Shown: positions 2,022 to 8,154 of the stretch, in pieces
Numbering within the stretch: position 1 is the stretch's first letter
How the letters are laid out: the number at the start of each line of letters is the position of its first letter
Assembly: GCA_022360445.1 (NCBI GenBank)
Contig: JAKSCV010000032.1
Coordinates: forward strand, 1 to 35,769
Direction: 5' to 3'
DNA length: 35,769 bases
Origin: Gammaproteobacteria bacterium
Lineage (GTDB): Bacteria > Pseudomonadota > Gammaproteobacteria > UBA5861
Translations under genes and position numbers: made by a program
The notes under the pieces: generated by a model
The model's database searches: none
Seen by the model: the letters and a program-made list of their open reading frames with translations, nothing else
Told to the model about the DNA's origin: nothing

Positions 2022-3809
2022 GTGAAAAACGTTCATTATCGAATTGCGGCGGCATCGCCAGAAGCGCATATCTTTCATGTCACATGTACCATTCTTCAGC
2101 CGGATGCGAACGGACAAACGTTCACGTTGCCCAATTGGATCCCAGGAAGCTACATGATTCGAGATTTTGCGAAGAACCTTGTAGAAGTTCATGCTTACAG
2201 TAATGACCAAGCGGTCCCGATCGAAAAGGTAGATAAAAGTACCTGGATGTGCCGCCCTGTAAGCGGGGTACTTCGTCTTGAATATGATGTCTATGCGTGG
2301 GATTTGTCTGTCCGCTCGGCGCATCTGGATACCACCCATGGTTTTTTTAATGGTACCAGTGTGTTCGTCTGTGTGAATGGTCAGGAAAAAGAAGCCTGCT
2401 CCGTTGAAATTTGTGCCCCTGCTGCCCCCCTGGATGACTGGCAAGTGGCCACTGCCATGCGCGGCACAGAAACAAATGCCCAAGGTTTTGGCCACTACGT
2501 GGCAGACAATTACGACGAGCTCATTGATCATCCCGTTGAAATGGGGCGCTTTACCCGTCATGTTTTTGAAGCGGGAGGTGTGCCCCATGAACTGATTTTA
2601 ACCGGTCAGTTTTCAACGGATGTTGCACGTATTTGTGCCGATCTCAAGGTGATCTGTGAGCACCACCTTCGATTTTTTGGGGGTGAGGCACCGTTTGACC
2701 GCTACCTTTTTCTAGTCATGGTCGTGGGCGAAGGTTATGGCGGGCTTGAGCACCGGTCTTCTACAAGTTTGATTACATCCCGTGAAAGTTTACCGATTGA
2801 AGGCGATATCGCCATTTCGGAGACATACCTTGACTTTCTGGGGCTGTGTAGCCACGAGTATTTTCACAACTGGAATGTCAAACGCATTAAGCCGGCAGTA
2901 TTTGTCCCCTATCAATTGGAAAAAGAAAGCCACACACGCCTACTTTGGGCTTTTGAGGGCATCACCTCTTATTACGATGATCTGGCTTTGGTGCGCAGCG
3001 GGTTGATCGATCATGAGCGTTATCTGGGGTTATTGGCCAAAACACTCAGTCGCGTTTATCAGGGTACGGGGCGCCATAAGCAGAGTGTCAGTGATTCCAG
3101 TTTTGATGCGTGGACAAAATTTTATAAACAAGATGAAAATGCGCCCAATGCGATCGTCAGCTACTACACCAAAGGTGCGCTCATAGCGTTGGCGCTAGAC
3201 TTGACGATCCGGTTTAAAACCGAAGGGAGATGCGCTTTGGATGATGTGATGCTGGCGTTGTGGGAAGAGTTTGGCATTCATCAACAAGGGGTAGGTGAAA
3301 AGGTGCTCGAGGAAAAAATTGCCGAGTACTCCGGCCTTAACTTAAGCGCCTTTTTCGATACCGCCTTGCGCGGTACAGAGGATATTGCGCTGGTCCCGTT
3401 ACTCAAACACGTGGGTGTTGAACTAACATGGGGATACGCCCCCGAGGCATTGCCAAATAGCCGTGAAGAGCGCCATCTGTCTGCACCACTGGCCTTGGGC
3501 CTAAAGATGTCGGGTTCGGATAGCGTGAAAGTCACTCATGTGTTCGATGGGGGGGCTGCGCAAAAGGCCGGTATTTCTGCAGGTGATGAGTTGCTGGCTT
3601 TTAATGGCTTGCGCGTAACACCCAGAAAGCTGGATCAGCTTTTGAAGCGCTGTCAGCAGGGACAAAGTGTGGCCGTTACCGGTTTTCGTCGGGATGAGTT
3701 AATGACGTTTACCGTTGTCTTGCAGCAGGCAGAAAAGAATACACCCTTACTGAAAATAACTGGCCAGTCGCCGGAACGAGATGCGTGGTTAAGTCGCAAA
3801 GACACCTAG
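2022..3809 (+). CDS. M61 family metallopeptidase with PDZ domain (glycyl aminopeptidase-like)
   Basis: This zinc peptidase of about 595 residues belongs to the M61 family, whose members include glycyl aminopeptidases. Numbering from the GTG at 2013, the beta-sandwich N-terminal domain contains NWIPGSYMIRDF (41-52). The GYGGLEH motif is at 241-247, the zinc-binding HEYFH at 281-285, and the third zinc ligand is E315 in WAFEGITSYYDD. A PDZ domain follows at about 500-580 (GGAAQKAGISAGDELLAFNG). Length is normal for the family. I prefer the GTG at 2022 because GTAGGG lies a suitable distance upstream. The GTG at 2013 overlaps that sequence. No signal peptide is apparent, suggesting a cytoplasmic enzyme. 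Confidence 0.92.
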   Translation: MKNVHYRIAAASPEAHIFHVTCTILQPDANGQTFTLPNWIPGSYMIRDFAKNLVEVHAYSNDQAVPIEKVDKSTWMCRPVSGVLRLEYDVYAWDLSVRSAHLDTTHGFFNGTSVFVCVNGQEKEACSVEICAPAAPLDDWQVATAMRGTETNAQGFGHYVADNYDELIDHPVEMGRFTRHVFEAGGVPHELILTGQFSTDVARICADLKVICEHHLRFFGGEAPFDRYLFLVMVVGEGYGGLEHRSSTSLITSRESLPIEGDIAISETYLDFLGLCSHEYFHNWNVKRIKPAVFVPYQLEKESHTRLLWAFEGITSYYDDLALVRSGLIDHERYLGLLAKTLSRVYQGTGRHKQSVSDSSFDAWTKFYKQDENAPNAIVSYYTKGALIALALDLTIRFKTEGRCALDDVMLALWEEFGIHQQGVGEKVLEEKIAEYSGLNLSAFFDTALRGTEDIALVPLLKHVGVELTWGYAPEALPNSREERHLSAPLALGLKMSGSDSVKVTHVFDGGAAQKAGISAGDELLAFNGLRVTPRKLDQLLKRCQQGQSVAVTGFRRDELMTFTVVLQQAEKNTPLLKITGQSPERDAWLSRKDT

Positions 3810-3960
3810 GGCCTGTTCACACTCATTCATTTGCTCCTGTTGATCGCTAAAATCGCTTGTTCGTCGTCGCTCATTTAGCCTGCTAAATCACGCTCTTGCG
3901 TCTAGACTAGACGTTTTAAGCGCTCAACTCTTAGGGCTACAGGCTATTCTCTCGTTCTTG
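3808..3960. repeat. Candidate REP-like intergenic element
   Basis: The segment right after the peptidase stop begins GGGCCTGTTCACACTC. It contains a 15-bp palindrome at 3899-3913 and a 6-bp stem with 4-nt loop at 3873-3888. This arrangement resembles dispersed intergenic repeats of gammaproteobacterial genomes. Only one copy is in the window and no matching opposite end was found, so the element limits are guesses. Confidence 0.3.
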
Positions 3961-4185
3961 TCGTTACAGCTCCCTCATTTAGAGTAACGAAACTTCTCTC
4001 GTTGTGTCTAAAGAACAAAAAGTGGTGTATAGCAGGTGCCAATTGATAAGTGTGGGCAAGTTATAGATGATAACTATGTGATTTTATTCTGAATTCAGAT
4101 CGGTCGTTACAGTGAAGGCGGGTGGTCACCGGTTGAGATTATTTTTCCCTTCGAAAAGGGGGGCTTTCTTTTCGGTTTTGTCATT

Positions 4186-4206
4186 GAATGAAAAAAAATT
4201 TCATTC
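4186..4206. promoter_or_regulatory. Inverted repeat GAATGAAA-N5-TTTCATTC, possible operator
   Basis: A perfect 8-bp inverted repeat with an all-A 5-bp centre lies 220 bp upstream of the bufferin precursor start. The arms are 4186-4193 and 4199-4206. Its size fits a dimeric repressor or activator site, and it is also AT-rich enough to be chance or a remnant terminator. The cognate regulator is not identifiable, and no sigma, anti-sigma or metalloregulator gene adjoins the operon. Confidence 0.3.
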
Positions 4207-4359
4207 GTGGTGAACTTCTACCCACAGTGTGAGTCCTAGCTCACAGGTACCGGAAAGGTGCTCAGTTTCCAGCCAATGTTGAACAAAGTTGCAGCCGTGA
4301 ATGCGGTGAATTATGTATTTCAAAACCTTTGTGCGATATGAGCTGGTGGAATCGGTACT

Positions 4360-4367
4360 TGTATAAA
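4360..4367 (+). promoter_or_regulatory. Possible extended -10 for the bufferin operon
   Basis: TTGTATAAA resembles a sigma-70 extended -10 and lies about 60 bp upstream of the precursor start. No good -35 is seen at the usual 17-bp spacing. Related operons in other bacteria are driven by ECF sigma factors, and an ECF-type promoter cannot be excluded. Confidence 0.3.
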
Positions 4368-4425
4368 ACACACATTTCATTGCAAGTACACAAACCACAA
4401 TTGAACTAAAGTGAGGTATTTCAAC

Positions 4426-4689
4426 ATGAAGAAATCAAATATTGCTGTTGTTTCTGCATTGACAGGTCTTTTAGCGATGGGCACGACACTGGCGACCGCA
4501 CCGGCTGTCGCAGCTGACAAAGAGAAGTGCTACGGTGTTTCCAAAGCAGGTAAAAATGACTGCGCAACGTCAAACAGTTCTTGTGCGGGTACTGCTAAAA
4601 AAGACGGTCAGTCAGATGCTTTCGTGGCGGTTCCCAAAGGTCTTTGTGAAAAGCTTGTGGGTGGCAGCTTAACACCTAAGTCTTACTGA
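4426..4689 (+). CDS. bufA: Bufferin precursor peptide, DUF2282 family (BufA1/GigP type)
   Basis: This 87-residue secreted RiPP precursor has a lysine-containing N-terminus (MKKSN), a hydrophobic stretch to about residue 24 and a signal-peptidase-like AVAA site near 27-30. That leaves a mature peptide of about 57 residues. The mature part has four cysteines: C35 (CYGVSKAGKNDC), C46, C53 and C74, in the arrangement of DUF2282 proteins. Published bufferins are modified on cysteines to thiooxazoles by the adjacent MNIO enzyme and bind copper; gold-induced gig operons are related. The start is ATG 4426, because GTGAGG at 4411-4416 is the ribosome-binding site and not a GTG start. It is first in a four-gene operon with the classic gene order. 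Confidence 0.9.
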   Translation: MKKSNIAVVSALTGLLAMGTTLATAPAVAADKEKCYGVSKAGKNDCATSNSSCAGTAKKDGQSDAFVAVPKGLCEKLVGGSLTPKSY

Positions 4690-4705
4690 TTTTTTGAAGG
4701 TATTG

Positions 4706-4737
4706 CACTTATCCTGTCACAACGCACGGGATAAGTG
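4706..4737 (+). terminator. 12-bp intercistronic hairpin between bufferin precursor and enzyme genes
   Basis: CACTTATCCTGT (4706-4717) pairs with ACGGGATAAGTG (4726-4737) over 12 bp with one G-U, leaving the 8-nt loop CACAACGC. No T-tract follows, so it is not a classical full terminator. It may be a leaky attenuator or an RNA-stabilising 3' structure, giving more precursor than enzyme. The right arm includes the possible GTG start at 4735, which argues for the ATG at 4750. Confidence 0.6.
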
Positions 4738-4749
4738 TCCAAAAGTACA

Positions 4750-5604
4750 ATGGAAAAGAATCTAATTCCTGCCAAAGCTGTTGGTTTAGGGCTGCGAGCG
4801 CCTCATTATCAGGACGTCGTACAGAACAAACCCAACGTTCCCTGGTTTGAGGTACACAGCGAAAATTACTTTGATGAACACGGGCTTAACCGCCATTTTT
4901 TGCGGGAAATTGCGCCGCATTATCCACTCAGTTTCCACGGTGTCGGTTTGTCATTAGGCTCTTGTGATGAACTGAGTTCACATCACTTGAAGCAATTAAA
5001 AGCCTTGATCAATGAATTTCAACCCGAGCTGATTTCAGAACATTTGAGTTGGACCGGGGTCAACGGGCAATTTTTTAATGACTTGTTACCACTGCCCTAC
5101 ACGGAAGAAGCACTCAATCTTTTTTGTCAGAAAGTTGATCGCGTGCAAACGGAACTTGGACAAAAAATACTGATTGAAAACCCAACGGCTTATCTCCAAT
5201 TTGCGGATTCTCATATGAAAGAATGGGAATTTCTTAATCAACTTCAGGCGCGTACGGGCTGTGGTTTACTGCTCGATCTGAACAATATTTACGTTAACGC
5301 CCGCAATCATGATGACTCGGCAGCCACTTATCTGGAATCGATTAACTGGTCTGCGGTTGAAGAAATTCATTTGGCCGGATTTACGGTGAATGAGTACGAG
5401 GATGGCGCTGTTTTGATCGACACACATGGCAGCCGTGTGCATGACGAAGTCTGGGCGCTTTATCGTCAAGCCACGATGCAAACAGAGGCACCTGTACTGA
5501 TCGAATGGGATACCGATATCCCTGACTTTACTGTATTGGAAGAAGAAGCCGCGAAAGCCCGTCAAATACATGCAACCATACAAAAGGTGGCAGCATGGGC
5601 TTGA
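4750..5604 (+). CDS. bufB: MNIO family enzyme (DUF692), bufferin-modifying (BufB/GigA type)
   Basis: This is a multinuclear non-heme iron-dependent oxidative enzyme of 284 residues (289 if started at GTG 4735). It is predicted to oxidise cysteines of the upstream precursor into thiooxazoles in the cytoplasm before export. Family features are visible in order: GLGLRAPHYQDV near the start, WFEVHSENYF, LSFHGVGLSLGS, LISEHLSW, LIENPTAYL, LLLDLNNIYVNARNH, EIHLAGF, IDTHGSRVHDEVW and LIEWDTDIPDF. The conserved His, Asp and Glu residues in these are the expected metal ligands of a TIM-barrel. The last codons overlap the next gene by 10 nt, so enzyme and partner are translationally coupled. The exact start is uncertain because both GTG 4735 and ATG 4750 lack a good Shine-Dalgarno. 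Confidence 0.92.
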   Translation: MEKNLIPAKAVGLGLRAPHYQDVVQNKPNVPWFEVHSENYFDEHGLNRHFLREIAPHYPLSFHGVGLSLGSCDELSSHHLKQLKALINEFQPELISEHLSWTGVNGQFFNDLLPLPYTEEALNLFCQKVDRVQTELGQKILIENPTAYLQFADSHMKEWEFLNQLQARTGCGLLLDLNNIYVNARNHDDSAATYLESINWSAVEEIHLAGFTVNEYEDGAVLIDTHGSRVHDEVWALYRQATMQTEAPVLIEWDTDIPDFTVLEEEAAKARQIHATIQKVAAWA

Positions 5605-6341
5605 AAGAGATTCAGGAACAGTTTTCATCGGCTTTGCTGGACACGAGCGAAACCCATTCCTTACCGATTTTGCCAGGCACGCTTCAGGCGGATCAACGGA
5701 TACAGATCTACAGAAACAATTTTTACATCAGCTTATCCGAGGTCCTGTCCGGTGTATTTCCGGTTACCCATGCACTGGTGGGGGAGACGTTTTTTGCACA
5801 GTTATGCAAAGCATTTATCCGCCAACATCCGCCAGCAGAAGGCTCTGTGACACATTACGGAGCAGATCTACCGGGCTTTATTGCTCGCCTTTCGCAGGCC
5901 GAAAGCACGCCCTACTTGGCCGATGTTGCCCGTCTTGAATGGGCTTATGCAAAGGTCAACGAATATTGGAAAGTGGGAACGCCTTTCCCTTTTGAAAAGC
6001 TGGCGCTGGTTGCCCCGGAAGAGTGGCCCAATATCCTTTTTAAGTTAGCCAAGAATGTACACCTGATCTGCTCAGACTTTTCCGTACTGGATATTGTCAA
6101 CGGTGTGCGGAATGACTGTCTGGAAGACGTGGTGGTGACAGCTCCGCAGCAGATCGTCATCTCTGGAGGGGCTAATCAAGAGGTTCAGTGTGAAGCTGTT
6201 TCGTCACCCGAATATGCTTTTTTAGAGACCATTACCCGAGGCATTGCTTTAGGAGAAACCAGCCCACCGCCTGATTTTGAAGCATTTCTGAAGAACATGA
6301 TCATCACAGGTGTGATTGATGATTTTGAAATGCTGGATTAA
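5595..6341 (+). CDS. bufC: DUF2063 domain protein, partner of the MNIO enzyme (BufC/GigB type)
   Basis: This 248-residue protein has an N-terminal DUF2063 domain (roughly residues 1-110). The segments RIQIYRNNFYISLSEVL and GVFPVTHALVGETFFAQL and the helix LADVARLEWAYAKV are typical. In MNIO-dependent RiPP clusters this protein is thought to bind the precursor and deliver it to the enzyme. Some databases call it DNA-binding, which the context does not support. AGGTGG lies just ahead of the ATG, inside the 3' end of the preceding gene, and the two genes overlap by 10 nt. The C-terminal half (about 120-248) is less conserved to my eye. No membrane segment is seen. Confidence 0.88.
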   Translation: MGLKEIQEQFSSALLDTSETHSLPILPGTLQADQRIQIYRNNFYISLSEVLSGVFPVTHALVGETFFAQLCKAFIRQHPPAEGSVTHYGADLPGFIARLSQAESTPYLADVARLEWAYAKVNEYWKVGTPFPFEKLALVAPEEWPNILFKLAKNVHLICSDFSVLDIVNGVRNDCLEDVVVTAPQQIVISGGANQEVQCEAVSSPEYAFLETITRGIALGETSPPPDFEAFLKNMIITGVIDDFEMLD

Positions 6342-6351
6342 GGAGATAACA

Positions 6352-6798
6352 ATGATAACAACACTGATTAAAAGTTATGATCGCCTAGTCGAGACACTGG
6401 TGGCGTACACAACTCCCGTTATTCTACTCGCCATGCGGCTGCTGGTTGCGGAGGCCTTTTTTCGGGCAGGACAAACAAAAATTGCTAACTGGGGCAGCAC
6501 ACTCTACCTGTTTGAAGAAGAGTACAGCGTTCCGCTTTTACCTTATGAACTGGCGGCTTACCTGGCGACTGCGACAGAATTAATCATTCCTGTGCTCCTG
6601 GTGTTCGGGTTCTTGGCGCGCCCGGCCGCAGCGGTGCTGTTTGTTTTTAACATCGTTGCTGTTATTTCCTATCCCGTATTATGGGAACAGGGCTTCTATG
6701 ACCACCGTTACTGGGGTGCAATGTTATTGACTCTTTGCTTACTGGGTGCGGGTAAAATTTCGATTGATCATTGGTTGAGAAGCCGCCTGTCTGGCTGA
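6352..6798 (+). CDS. DoxX family membrane protein (BufD/GigT type)
   Basis: This 148-residue integral membrane protein has four predicted hydrophobic segments: near PVILLAMRLLVAEAFF, LAAYLATATELIIPVLLVFGFL, AAAVLFVFNIVAVISYPVLW and WGAMLLTLCLLGAGKISI. DoxX proteins are frequently the last gene of bufferin or gig operons, where a redox or membrane role is suspected but not settled. AAGGAG at 6340-6345 overlaps the stop of the upstream gene and places the start at ATG 6352. The gap to the upstream gene is 10 nt, so it is co-transcribed. An imperfect hairpin (6783-6792 with 6801-6810) spans its stop codon. Confidence 0.88.
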   Translation: MITTLIKSYDRLVETLVAYTTPVILLAMRLLVAEAFFRAGQTKIANWGSTLYLFEEEYSVPLLPYELAAYLATATELIIPVLLVFGFLARPAAAVLFVFNIVAVISYPVLWEQGFYDHRYWGAMLLTLCLLGAGKISIDHWLRSRLSG

Positions 6799-6810
6799 CG
6801 AGACAAGCGG
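6783..6810. terminator. Imperfect hairpin at the end of the bufferin operon
   Basis: CCGCCTGTCT and AGACAAGCGG form a 10-bp stem with one mismatch and an 8-nt loop across the DoxX stop codon. It is followed by AAAATTGG and not a T-run, so termination is doubtful. It may act only as a 3' stabilising structure. Confidence 0.3.
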
Positions 6811-6893
6811 AAAATTGGCGCAGATCGTTCGCCTTCTGAGAGCAAAGTAAACTGTGAAGTGGCCGTATAGCGTGACTGGAGCATGTTAGCCCT

Positions 6894-7166
6894 ATGCAAA
6901 ACAGACGATTAACCGATCTTAGAAACATTGGCAAAAAGATTGCGAGTCGGCTGAACGAAATCGGTATTTTCACAGAGGACGATTTACGTGGGTTAGGACC
7001 TGCTCTCACTCACCAGAAACTTAAAGCACGGTATCCGGATGAGACGCTGCCTGTTTGTTACTACCTCTACGCCTTTGAAGGCGCGCTCTGTGACCGACAC
7101 TGGAAAGAAATCGGCGATTCGAGAAAACAAGTGTTACTTGCCGAAACAGGTCAAATAAACACATAA
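6894..7166 (+). CDS. TfoX/Sxy C-terminal domain protein
   Basis: This 90-residue protein matches the stand-alone C-terminal (helix-hairpin-helix-like) domain of TfoX/Sxy. The pattern is LTDLRNIGKKIASRLNEIGIFTEDDLRGLG, broken here by segments, and then the CYYLYAFEGALCDRHW segment characteristic of that domain. Full TfoX is a competence regulator. Proteins with only this domain are common and their function is not established. It follows the bufferin operon by about 95 bp on the same strand. No strong ribosome-binding site is visible, so the start is by length and homology. Two cysteines lie in the conserved CYYLY and ALCDRHW motifs. Confidence 0.8.
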   Translation: MQNRRLTDLRNIGKKIASRLNEIGIFTEDDLRGLGPALTHQKLKARYPDETLPVCYYLYAFEGALCDRHWKEIGDSRKQVLLAETGQINT

Positions 7167-7319
7167 ACAGACGGCGACTTGCAAGCAAACACTCAATGCC
7201 TGGCTGAAATGTTAACGGGTTTGTCTGTGTCAAAGATTGCGTACGTTTTGAGTGGCTTTTGCGCTCTCTTCTTTGCTGTTGAACCAAGAGCCTAGACAAA
7301 TCAGGAAAAAACAGGAATG

Positions 7320-7342
7320 CTTAGTCGTTTTATACGACTGAG
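7320..7342 (+). other. Hairpin immediately before the biotin ligase start
   Basis: CTTAGTCGT and ACGACTGAG pair over 9 bp (one G-U) around the loop TTTAT, ending on the first base of the GTG at 7342. It could influence translation start choice for birA or be the end of an upstream transcript. No T-run follows. Confidence 0.35.
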
Positions 7343-8154
7343 TGGACACCGCCTTTGTGGAACCAATAAATAAACTCAACCGGACAGTTATTCTGGATGA
7401 GATCGGGCGCATTGCGCCAAACCTTCGTGTAGATTTGGAGCTTCTGGATCTGGTGGACTCCACAAATACCCGCTTAATGAATGCTCAGAGGCATGACTTT
7501 ATTCCCACAGTTTGCGTGGCCGAGCAACAAACAGCAGGCCGAGGGCGTCGAGGACGCGAGTGGATTTCTCCAAGAGGGTCCATTTTGTTTTCAATACGCC
7601 GCCGGTTTCGCCAGCCACCTGATCAGATGATGGGGCTCAGCTTAGCGGCCGGTGTTGCGGTTGCTGAGGCATTGCGTCAGTTTGGCGCAAAGGATATCGG
7701 GCTCAAGTGGCCAAACGACCTGTTATGGCGCAATCGCAAGTTGGCGGGCTTGCTGGTTGAGATGAGCTCCCACGGCCGTGATTTGCGTGCGGTTACTGGC
7801 GTGGGAATGAATTACACCATGCCCGAAAAGCAAGCCGATAACATTGGGCAGCCGTGGGCCAATCTGACAGATGTGTTTGACATCGTGCCGGAGCGGAACC
7901 GAATCATTGGTGCGCTGATAGGGCATTTATTGAATGCGCTTAACACCTTTGAACAAATGGGTTTAAGCGCTTTTTCTGAACGGTGGGAGCCGTTTGATCT
8001 ACTGCGTGGTAAGACGGTGGATATCTTTTCAAACGAAACAGTTGAAAGCGGTGTAGTAACCGGTATTGATTCCAGCGGAGCCTTGTGTGTTGATATGCAA
8101 GGTCATGTGAAGCGCTTCTATGCGGGGGAAGTCAGTGTCAGGCGGAAAAACTAA
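7342..8154 (+). CDS. birA: Biotin--[acetyl-CoA-carboxylase] ligase without the DNA-binding domain
   Basis: This ligase attaches biotin via biotinyl-AMP to the carboxylase carrier protein. The 270 residues begin at what corresponds to the linker of BirA (EPINKLN, where E. coli has EPIQLLN). They continue with the VDSTNTRLM motif, the AEQQTAGRGRRGREW biotinyl-AMP loop, LKWPNDLLWRNRKLAGLLVEM and the C-terminal SH3-like domain. The N-terminal winged helix of about 60 residues found in bifunctional BirA is absent. A TGA stands directly before the GTG, and upstream frames show no helix-turn-helix remnant. It is therefore predicted to be a catalytic-only ligase. GTG 7357 is an alternative start. The stop is 3 nt ahead of coaX. 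Confidence 0.93.
   Translation: MDTAFVEPINKLNRTVILDEIGRIAPNLRVDLELLDLVDSTNTRLMNAQRHDFIPTVCVAEQQTAGRGRRGREWISPRGSILFSIRRRFRQPPDQMMGLSLAAGVAVAEALRQFGAKDIGLKWPNDLLWRNRKLAGLLVEMSSHGRDLRAVTGVGMNYTMPEKQADNIGQPWANLTDVFDIVPERNRIIGALIGHLLNALNTFEQMGLSAFSERWEPFDLLRGKTVDIFSNETVESGVVTGIDSSGALCVDMQGHVKRFYAGEVSVRRKN

What the first reader, a model, noticed from the sequence alone, without database searches (positions are those of the whole stretch)
4426..6798. Complete bufferin-type metal-binding RiPP operon
A DUF2282 four-cysteine secreted precursor, MNIO/DUF692 enzyme, DUF2063 partner and DoxX protein lie in order with tight coupling (10-nt overlap and a 10-nt gap). By knowledge of Caulobacter bufferins and Cupriavidus gig genes, cysteines should be converted to thiooxazoles and the peptide should sequester copper or related metals in the periplasm. 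No adjacent ECF sigma/anti-sigma pair or metalloregulator is present, so regulation differs from several known loci. The mature peptide of about 57 residues with C35, C46, C53 and C74 is a defined candidate.
Basis: partly seen in the sequence, partly recalled or inferred. Interest (0 to 1): 0.75.

Follow-up and report, generated by a model that had tools for sequence, protein, structure and literature searches.

The report
Ordinary bufferin-1 copper-binding peptide operon
This is a complete, ordinary copy of a recently described bacterial gene set that makes a small secreted peptide with two chemically altered cysteines to soak up copper outside the inner membrane; it is a new member of a known family, not a new kind of system.

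Summary
Window 4426-6798 carries bufA1 (DUF2282, four Cys), bufB (MNIO), bufC (DUF2063) and a DoxX gene in that order, with a 10-nt B/C overlap and a 10-nt C/D gap, as stated. All four pass Pfam cut-offs, and the enzyme passes NCBIfam's "MNIO family bufferin maturase" cut-off (373 vs 310 bits). This is the canonical Buf1 core operon. The interpretation needs one correction: in characterised Buf1 bufferins only the two central cysteines (here C46, C53) become thiooxazoles, and the outer pair (C35, C74) forms a disulphide. The lack of an adjacent ECF sigma/NrsF pair is real, and NrsF is absent from the whole genome, but this is common: few neighbours of 45 related loci are sigma factors. The operon is the only DUF2282/MNIO locus in its genome and is conserved in place in a sister genome (Halothiobacillaceae UBA5861). 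Copper is the best-supported metal; function here is inferred, not shown.

The parts
4426..4689 (+). bufA1: DUF2282 (Buf1) precursor, 87 aa; predicted Sec signal about 1-30 (AVAA^D), mature 57 aa; C35/C74 predicted disulphide, C46/C53 predicted thiooxazoles
   Evidence: Pfam PF10048 E=8.4e-24; K34 C35 N44 C46 C53 G55 G72 C74 invariant in 37 sequences; mature size and Cys positions
4704..4738 (+). RNA hairpin in the bufA-bufB gap (about 13-bp stem GCACUUAUCCUGU/ACGGGAUAAGUGU, 8-nt loop, no T-run); overlaps the alternative GTG start of bufB
   Evidence: MFE -22.9, z -3.9; sister L004 -21.2, z -3.2; stem kept through G-C/G-U changes on the 3' arm; hairpins recur in relatives
4750..5604 (+). bufB: MNIO (MbnB_TglH_ChrH/DUF692) bufferin maturase, 284 aa (alternative GTG start at 4735)
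   Evidence: NCBIfam MNIO_BufB 373 bits, cut-off 310; invariant ligand-type residues H63 H98 E143 D176 H207 D224 H226 E252 and D254
5595..6341 (+). bufC: DUF2063 partner protein with C-terminal RRE-like domain, 248 aa; overlaps bufB by 10 nt
   Evidence: PF09836 E=3.9e-24; model pLDDT 90; Foldseek to TglHI 8hi7_A E=1.6e-8 and 3DEE E=1.3e-4
6352..6798 (+). bufD: DoxX-family membrane protein, 148 aa; 10 nt after bufC
   Evidence: PF07681 E=4.3e-16; NCBIfam HvfX family 61.7 bits, below its cut-off of 80
4355..4389 (+). 5' leader inverted repeat GTACTTGT...GCAAGTAC (arms 8-9 bp) 36-70 nt before the bufA start
   Evidence: z -4.0 (window) and -4.9 (sister) for the short stretch, but -0.3 and -1.2 for 111 nt; arms conserved with a G-U to G-C change

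Best explanation
A complete Buf1-type bufferin operon. BufC (DUF2063 plus RRE) presents the still-cytosolic BufA1 precursor to the multi-iron oxidase BufB, which turns the two central cysteines (C46, C53) into 5-thiooxazoles. The peptide is exported by Sec, the signal is cut near residue 30, and C35-C74 close a disulphide. The 57-residue product then binds Cu(I)/Cu(II) in the periplasm and buffers copper excess. DoxX is an accessory membrane protein of unclear role. A hairpin after bufA likely keeps precursor in excess over the enzymes. Shown here: genes, order, families, conserved residues, hairpin conservation. Inferred from characterised relatives: modification, export, disulphide, copper binding, phenotype. 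Inferred from structure alone: the stoichiometry role of the hairpin.
For: Pfam and NCBIfam matches, with BufB above the equivalog cut-off. The four Cys of BufA are invariant in 37 precursors. BufB keeps all ligand-type residues and the catalytic-base Asp (D254), and has A17 and T255 at the sites that hold Arg16 and Phe250 in Lys-Cys-type FonB, as expected for the DUF2282 class (PMC13097082). BufC models as DUF2063 plus RRE-like and matches the TglHI complex and 3DEE. The gene set is the published Buf1 core (PMC12452194). Same locus and order in sister genome UBA5861. Relatives with the same genes across Gamma-, Beta- and Alphaproteobacteria. The only DUF2282 and only MNIO in the genome.
Against: No experiment on this peptide. 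No copper regulator or recognisable copper-type operator lies next to it, so metal induction is unsupported. The precursor passes no NCBIfam model; its only hit is BufA2, below cut-off (29 vs 60 bits), as for other Buf1 precursors. DoxX falls below the HvfX cut-off.
Confidence: 0.9

Rival explanations
1. The same bufferin chemistry, but the physiological target is another soft metal (gold, silver, mercury, zinc) or general oxidative/sulphur stress rather than copper.
For: Gig operons respond to gold as well as copper in Legionella (PMC5413113); MerC-bufferin fusions suggest other metals, and DoxX relatives act in oxidative or sulphur stress (PMC12452194).
Against: The characterised Buf1 bufferin binds Cu(I)/Cu(II) and protects against copper, and other 5-thiooxazole peptides studied generally bind Cu (PMC12452194 and PMC13097082). 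No metal-specific gene lies beside this operon.
Confidence: 0.1
2. A decayed or silent operon: genes present but precursor not modified or not expressed.
For: No sigma-70-like promoter above chance and no regulator found nearby.
Against: All four reading frames intact, catalytic residues invariant, 91-99% protein identity (BufA 99, BufB 94, BufC 91) and the same gene order in the sister genome, with upstream DNA conserved.
Confidence: 0.04
3. All four cysteines are oxidised to thiooxazoles.
For: MNIO enzymes can modify many Cys in one peptide, e.g. seven in fontiphorin (PMC13097082).
Against: In Buf1 the outer two Cys form a disulphide and only the central two are modified (PMC12452194).
Confidence: 0.04

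Closest known systems
Caulobacter vibrioides bufferin 1 operon (Buf1/DUF2282)
   Same: DUF2282 four-Cys Sec-exported precursor, BufB MNIO, DUF2063-RRE partner, DoxX
   Different: The Caulobacter system is tied to ECF sigma-F/NrsF; here no NrsF exists in the genome and no sigma gene is adjacent
Gig operons of Cupriavidus metallidurans and Legionella pneumophila
   Same: DUF2282 + DUF692 + DUF2063 + DoxX type gene set; now counted as bufferin BGCs (PMC12452194)
   Different: Legionella has several such loci; here there is one. Gold response not tested here
Captophorins with Lys-Cys precursors (oxazolin/HvfA, gonophorin, fontiphorin)
   Same: MNIO plus PME1 (DUF2063-RRE) installing 5-thiooxazole, Cu binding
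   Different: Precursor has no EGKCG repeats; BufB lacks the Arg16/Phe250-type residues of that class; HvfB (221 vs 360 bits), HvfC and HvfX models all below cut-off
Buf2 bufferins (BufA2)
   Same: Secreted Cys-containing precursor, MNIO and DUF2063 partner
   Different: Buf2 precursors have 6 or 12 Cys; this one has 4 and scores below the BufA2 cut-off

Membership tests
Buf1 bufferin operon | DUF2282 precursor with four conserved Cys | tested here: met
   PF10048 83.8 bits, cut-off 22.4; all four Cys invariant
Buf1 bufferin operon | N-terminal Sec signal peptide on the precursor | tested here: met
   KK n-region, hydrophobic stretch, AVAA^D site seen in sequence and hydropathy; no SignalP run
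Buf1 bufferin operon | MNIO maturase of BufB type with intact active site | tested here: met
   NF050167 373 bits, cut-off 310; ligand-type residues invariant
Buf1 bufferin operon | DUF2063-RRE partner protein (PME type 1) | tested here: met
   PF09836; model with C-terminal alpha/beta domain, matches the TglHI complex and 3DEE
Buf1 bufferin operon | Central two Cys converted to thiooxazole, outer pair in a disulphide | not testable with these tools
   Needs mass spectrometry/NMR; AlphaFold core of moderate confidence only
Buf1 bufferin operon | Copper binding and protection from copper excess | not testable with these tools
   Literature on Caulobacter only
Buf1 bufferin operon | Adjacent ECF sigma/NrsF pair (optional, in part of Buf1 loci) | tested here: not met
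   Neighbours are M61 peptidase and TfoX_C; no NrsF in genome; not a required feature, and only a minority of relatives have it
Captophorin, Lys-Cys (oxazolin) class | EGKCG-type repeats and Arg/Phe specificity residues | tested here: not met
   No repeats in BufA; A17 and T255 at those sites
Buf2 bufferin | 6 or 12 Cys precursor passing the BufA2 model | tested here: not met
   4 Cys; 29.1 bits against a cut-off of 60

The most novel reading that the evidence does not exclude
Bufferin operons often carry an RNA hairpin between the precursor and maturase genes (here also over a possible bufB start) that sets the precursor:enzyme ratio, and in this lineage, which lacks NrsF, the leader inverted repeat is part of a still unknown metal-responsive control.
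Probability: 0.25. Interest if true: 0.3.

Novelty: new member of a known kind. Interest (0 to 1): 0.2.

Why it matters
It adds a clean, single-copy bufferin-1 operon from a gammaproteobacterium related to Halothiobacillaceae UBA5861. It would let one peptide and one maturase be tested without paralogues, and asks how bufferins are controlled where sigma-F/NrsF is missing. The biology itself is already described.

Tried and rejected
Searched for ECF, sigma-F, CueR, CusR and sigma-70 motifs upstream of bufA: none, and sigma-70-like sites in the region at chance level. Searched for 12-mers and MerR-type promoters shared with the stretches fetched around the genome's MerR-like genes and two of its three copper-ATPase loci: none shared; one relaxed sigma-70-like match in the window, not found in the sister. 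Rfam over 3800-7400: nothing. Fold search of the BufA model: no match (core pLDDT about 80, pTM 0.48). Family- and order-level searches hold only one other genome. Considered the palindrome TGTGAG-TCCTAG-CTCACA near 4228 as an operator; broken in the sister, so dropped. First literature query 'bufferin' matched 'buffering' and was useless. Sequence search of BufA and BufC against solved structures gave nothing.

Full report
OBSERVATION. bufA 4426-4689 (87 aa), bufB 4750-5604 (284 aa from ATG; a GTG at 4735 is possible), bufC 5595-6341 (248 aa), doxX 6352-6798 (148 aa). B and C overlap by 10 nt, and C and D are 10 nt apart. A and B are separated by 60 nt, so the 'tight coupling' is for B-C-D. 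Pfam puts all four above cut-off: DUF2282, MbnB_TglH_ChrH, DUF2063, DoxX. NCBIfam calls the enzyme 'MNIO family bufferin maturase' at 373 bits against a cut-off of 310. The HvfB, HvfC and HvfX (oxazolin-type) models and BufA2 are all below their cut-offs.

RELATIVES. One scan of named genomes with BufB gave 45 loci, in Gamma-, Beta- and Alphaproteobacteria, with one contig binned as a cyanobacterium. Most carry bufA-B-C, many with doxX, in the same order. The closest (94% in BufB) is Halothiobacillaceae bacterium UBA5861 (placed in Chromatiales by NCBI); the only other held genome of the window's genus, G001, has the same precursor. In L004 the operon follows the same M61 peptidase gene and is followed by an ORF of the same size (90 aa) and position as the window's TfoX_C gene. 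In the window's own genome there is exactly one DUF2282 gene and one MNIO gene.

CONSERVED CHEMISTRY. In 37 precursors K34, C35, N44, C46, C53, G55, G72 and C74 are invariant. In 30 MNIOs the ligand-type residues H63, H98, E143, D176, H207, D224, H226 and E252 and the catalytic-base position D254 are invariant. By comparison with FonB (PMC13097082), this enzyme has Ala and Thr at the sites that hold Arg16 and Phe250 in the Lys-Cys class, which fits a DUF2282-class enzyme; the site matching rests on my reading of the GLGxR and ExD motifs. BufC was modelled at mean pLDDT 90 and matches the TglHI complex (8hi7_A, E=1.6e-8) and the gonococcal PME1 3DEE (E=1.3e-4), so the RRE-bearing partner is present.

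The landscape paper states that in Buf1 the central Cys are the targets of modification whereas the first and last form a disulphide (PMC12452194). The prediction here is therefore C46/C53 thiooxazoles and a C35-C74 disulphide: total about -10.1 Da on a 57-residue mature peptide of 5801 Da (four-electron oxidation per ring is from general knowledge). The missing ECF/NrsF pair is a fact: NrsF is absent from the whole genome, although several sigma-70-family genes exist elsewhere. But in a scan of 119 neighbour genes of the related loci only 6 are sigma factors and 3 are NrsF, so its absence is the common state in this sample. The list keeps one to two genes per side, so a sigma gene further away would be missed.

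Between bufA and bufB lies a hairpin (GCACUUAUCCUGU...ACGGGAUAAGUGU; -22.9 kcal/mol, z -3.9). The sister keeps the stem, with two changes on the 3' arm that turn a G-C into G-U and a G-U into G-C. Hairpins are frequent in the same gap in other relatives: 14 of 31 gaps have z < -2 against 6 of 124 windows inside bufB (Mann-Whitney P = 7e-5); in at least two, L010 and L016, the hairpin is followed by a T-run like an intrinsic terminator. The controls are coding windows, so part of the excess may simply be intergenic versus coding, and the loci are not independent of one another. The likely role, keeping precursor above enzyme, is an inference from other RiPP operons. A leader inverted repeat at 4355-4389 is also kept in the sister; its significance depends on the stretch folded. 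No promoter or copper-type operator was found. The landscape paper does not mention hairpins, terminators or attenuation; other papers were not searched for this.

MECHANISM. Best account: BufB/BufC modify BufA in the cytosol, Sec exports it, and the product chelates copper in the periplasm. Genes and residues are shown; the chemistry, export and copper role are carried over from Caulobacter bufferin 1 and other thiooxazole peptides. The genome also has three P1B copper-ATPase genes and MerR-like genes elsewhere, so the bufferin would complement ordinary efflux.

VERDICT. Real, intact and correctly recognised; a new member of a known and already named family. Low interest, with a modest regulatory question attached.

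Noticed in passing
window 3808-4015: Dispersed intergenic repeat just upstream of the operon: 10 further partial matches (80-93% identity) elsewhere in the genome, on several contigs; absent at this place in the sister L004, where the intergenic stretch is shorter.
   Followed up: partly
L008:4570-5010, L010:1393-1833, L016:4548-4988: A rhodanese-like gene of 146 aa lies between bufA and bufB, overlapping the bufB start, in three loci, one titled Candidatus Thioglobus and two gammaproteobacterial MAGs. It suggests a sulphur-handling partner of bufferins in that lineage.
   Followed up: partly
L021:564-2279, L023:4956-6581, L024:4968-6641: BufB and BufC appear as one open reading frame (fused MNIO-DUF2063) in three Oxalobacteraceae/Burkholderiales loci.
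   Followed up: no
L009:4356-6957: Permuted gene order bufB-bufC-bufA-doxX in a betaproteobacterial MAG.
   Followed up: no
L005:4065-4714 and L033:4283-4957: Tandem bufA precursors before one bufB; in L033 the second starts with a lipoprotein-like signal (LLAAC).
   Followed up: no
L014:4170-5819: Bufferin precursor and MNIO in a contig binned as the cyanobacterium Symploca; possibly a binning error or transfer.
   Followed up: no
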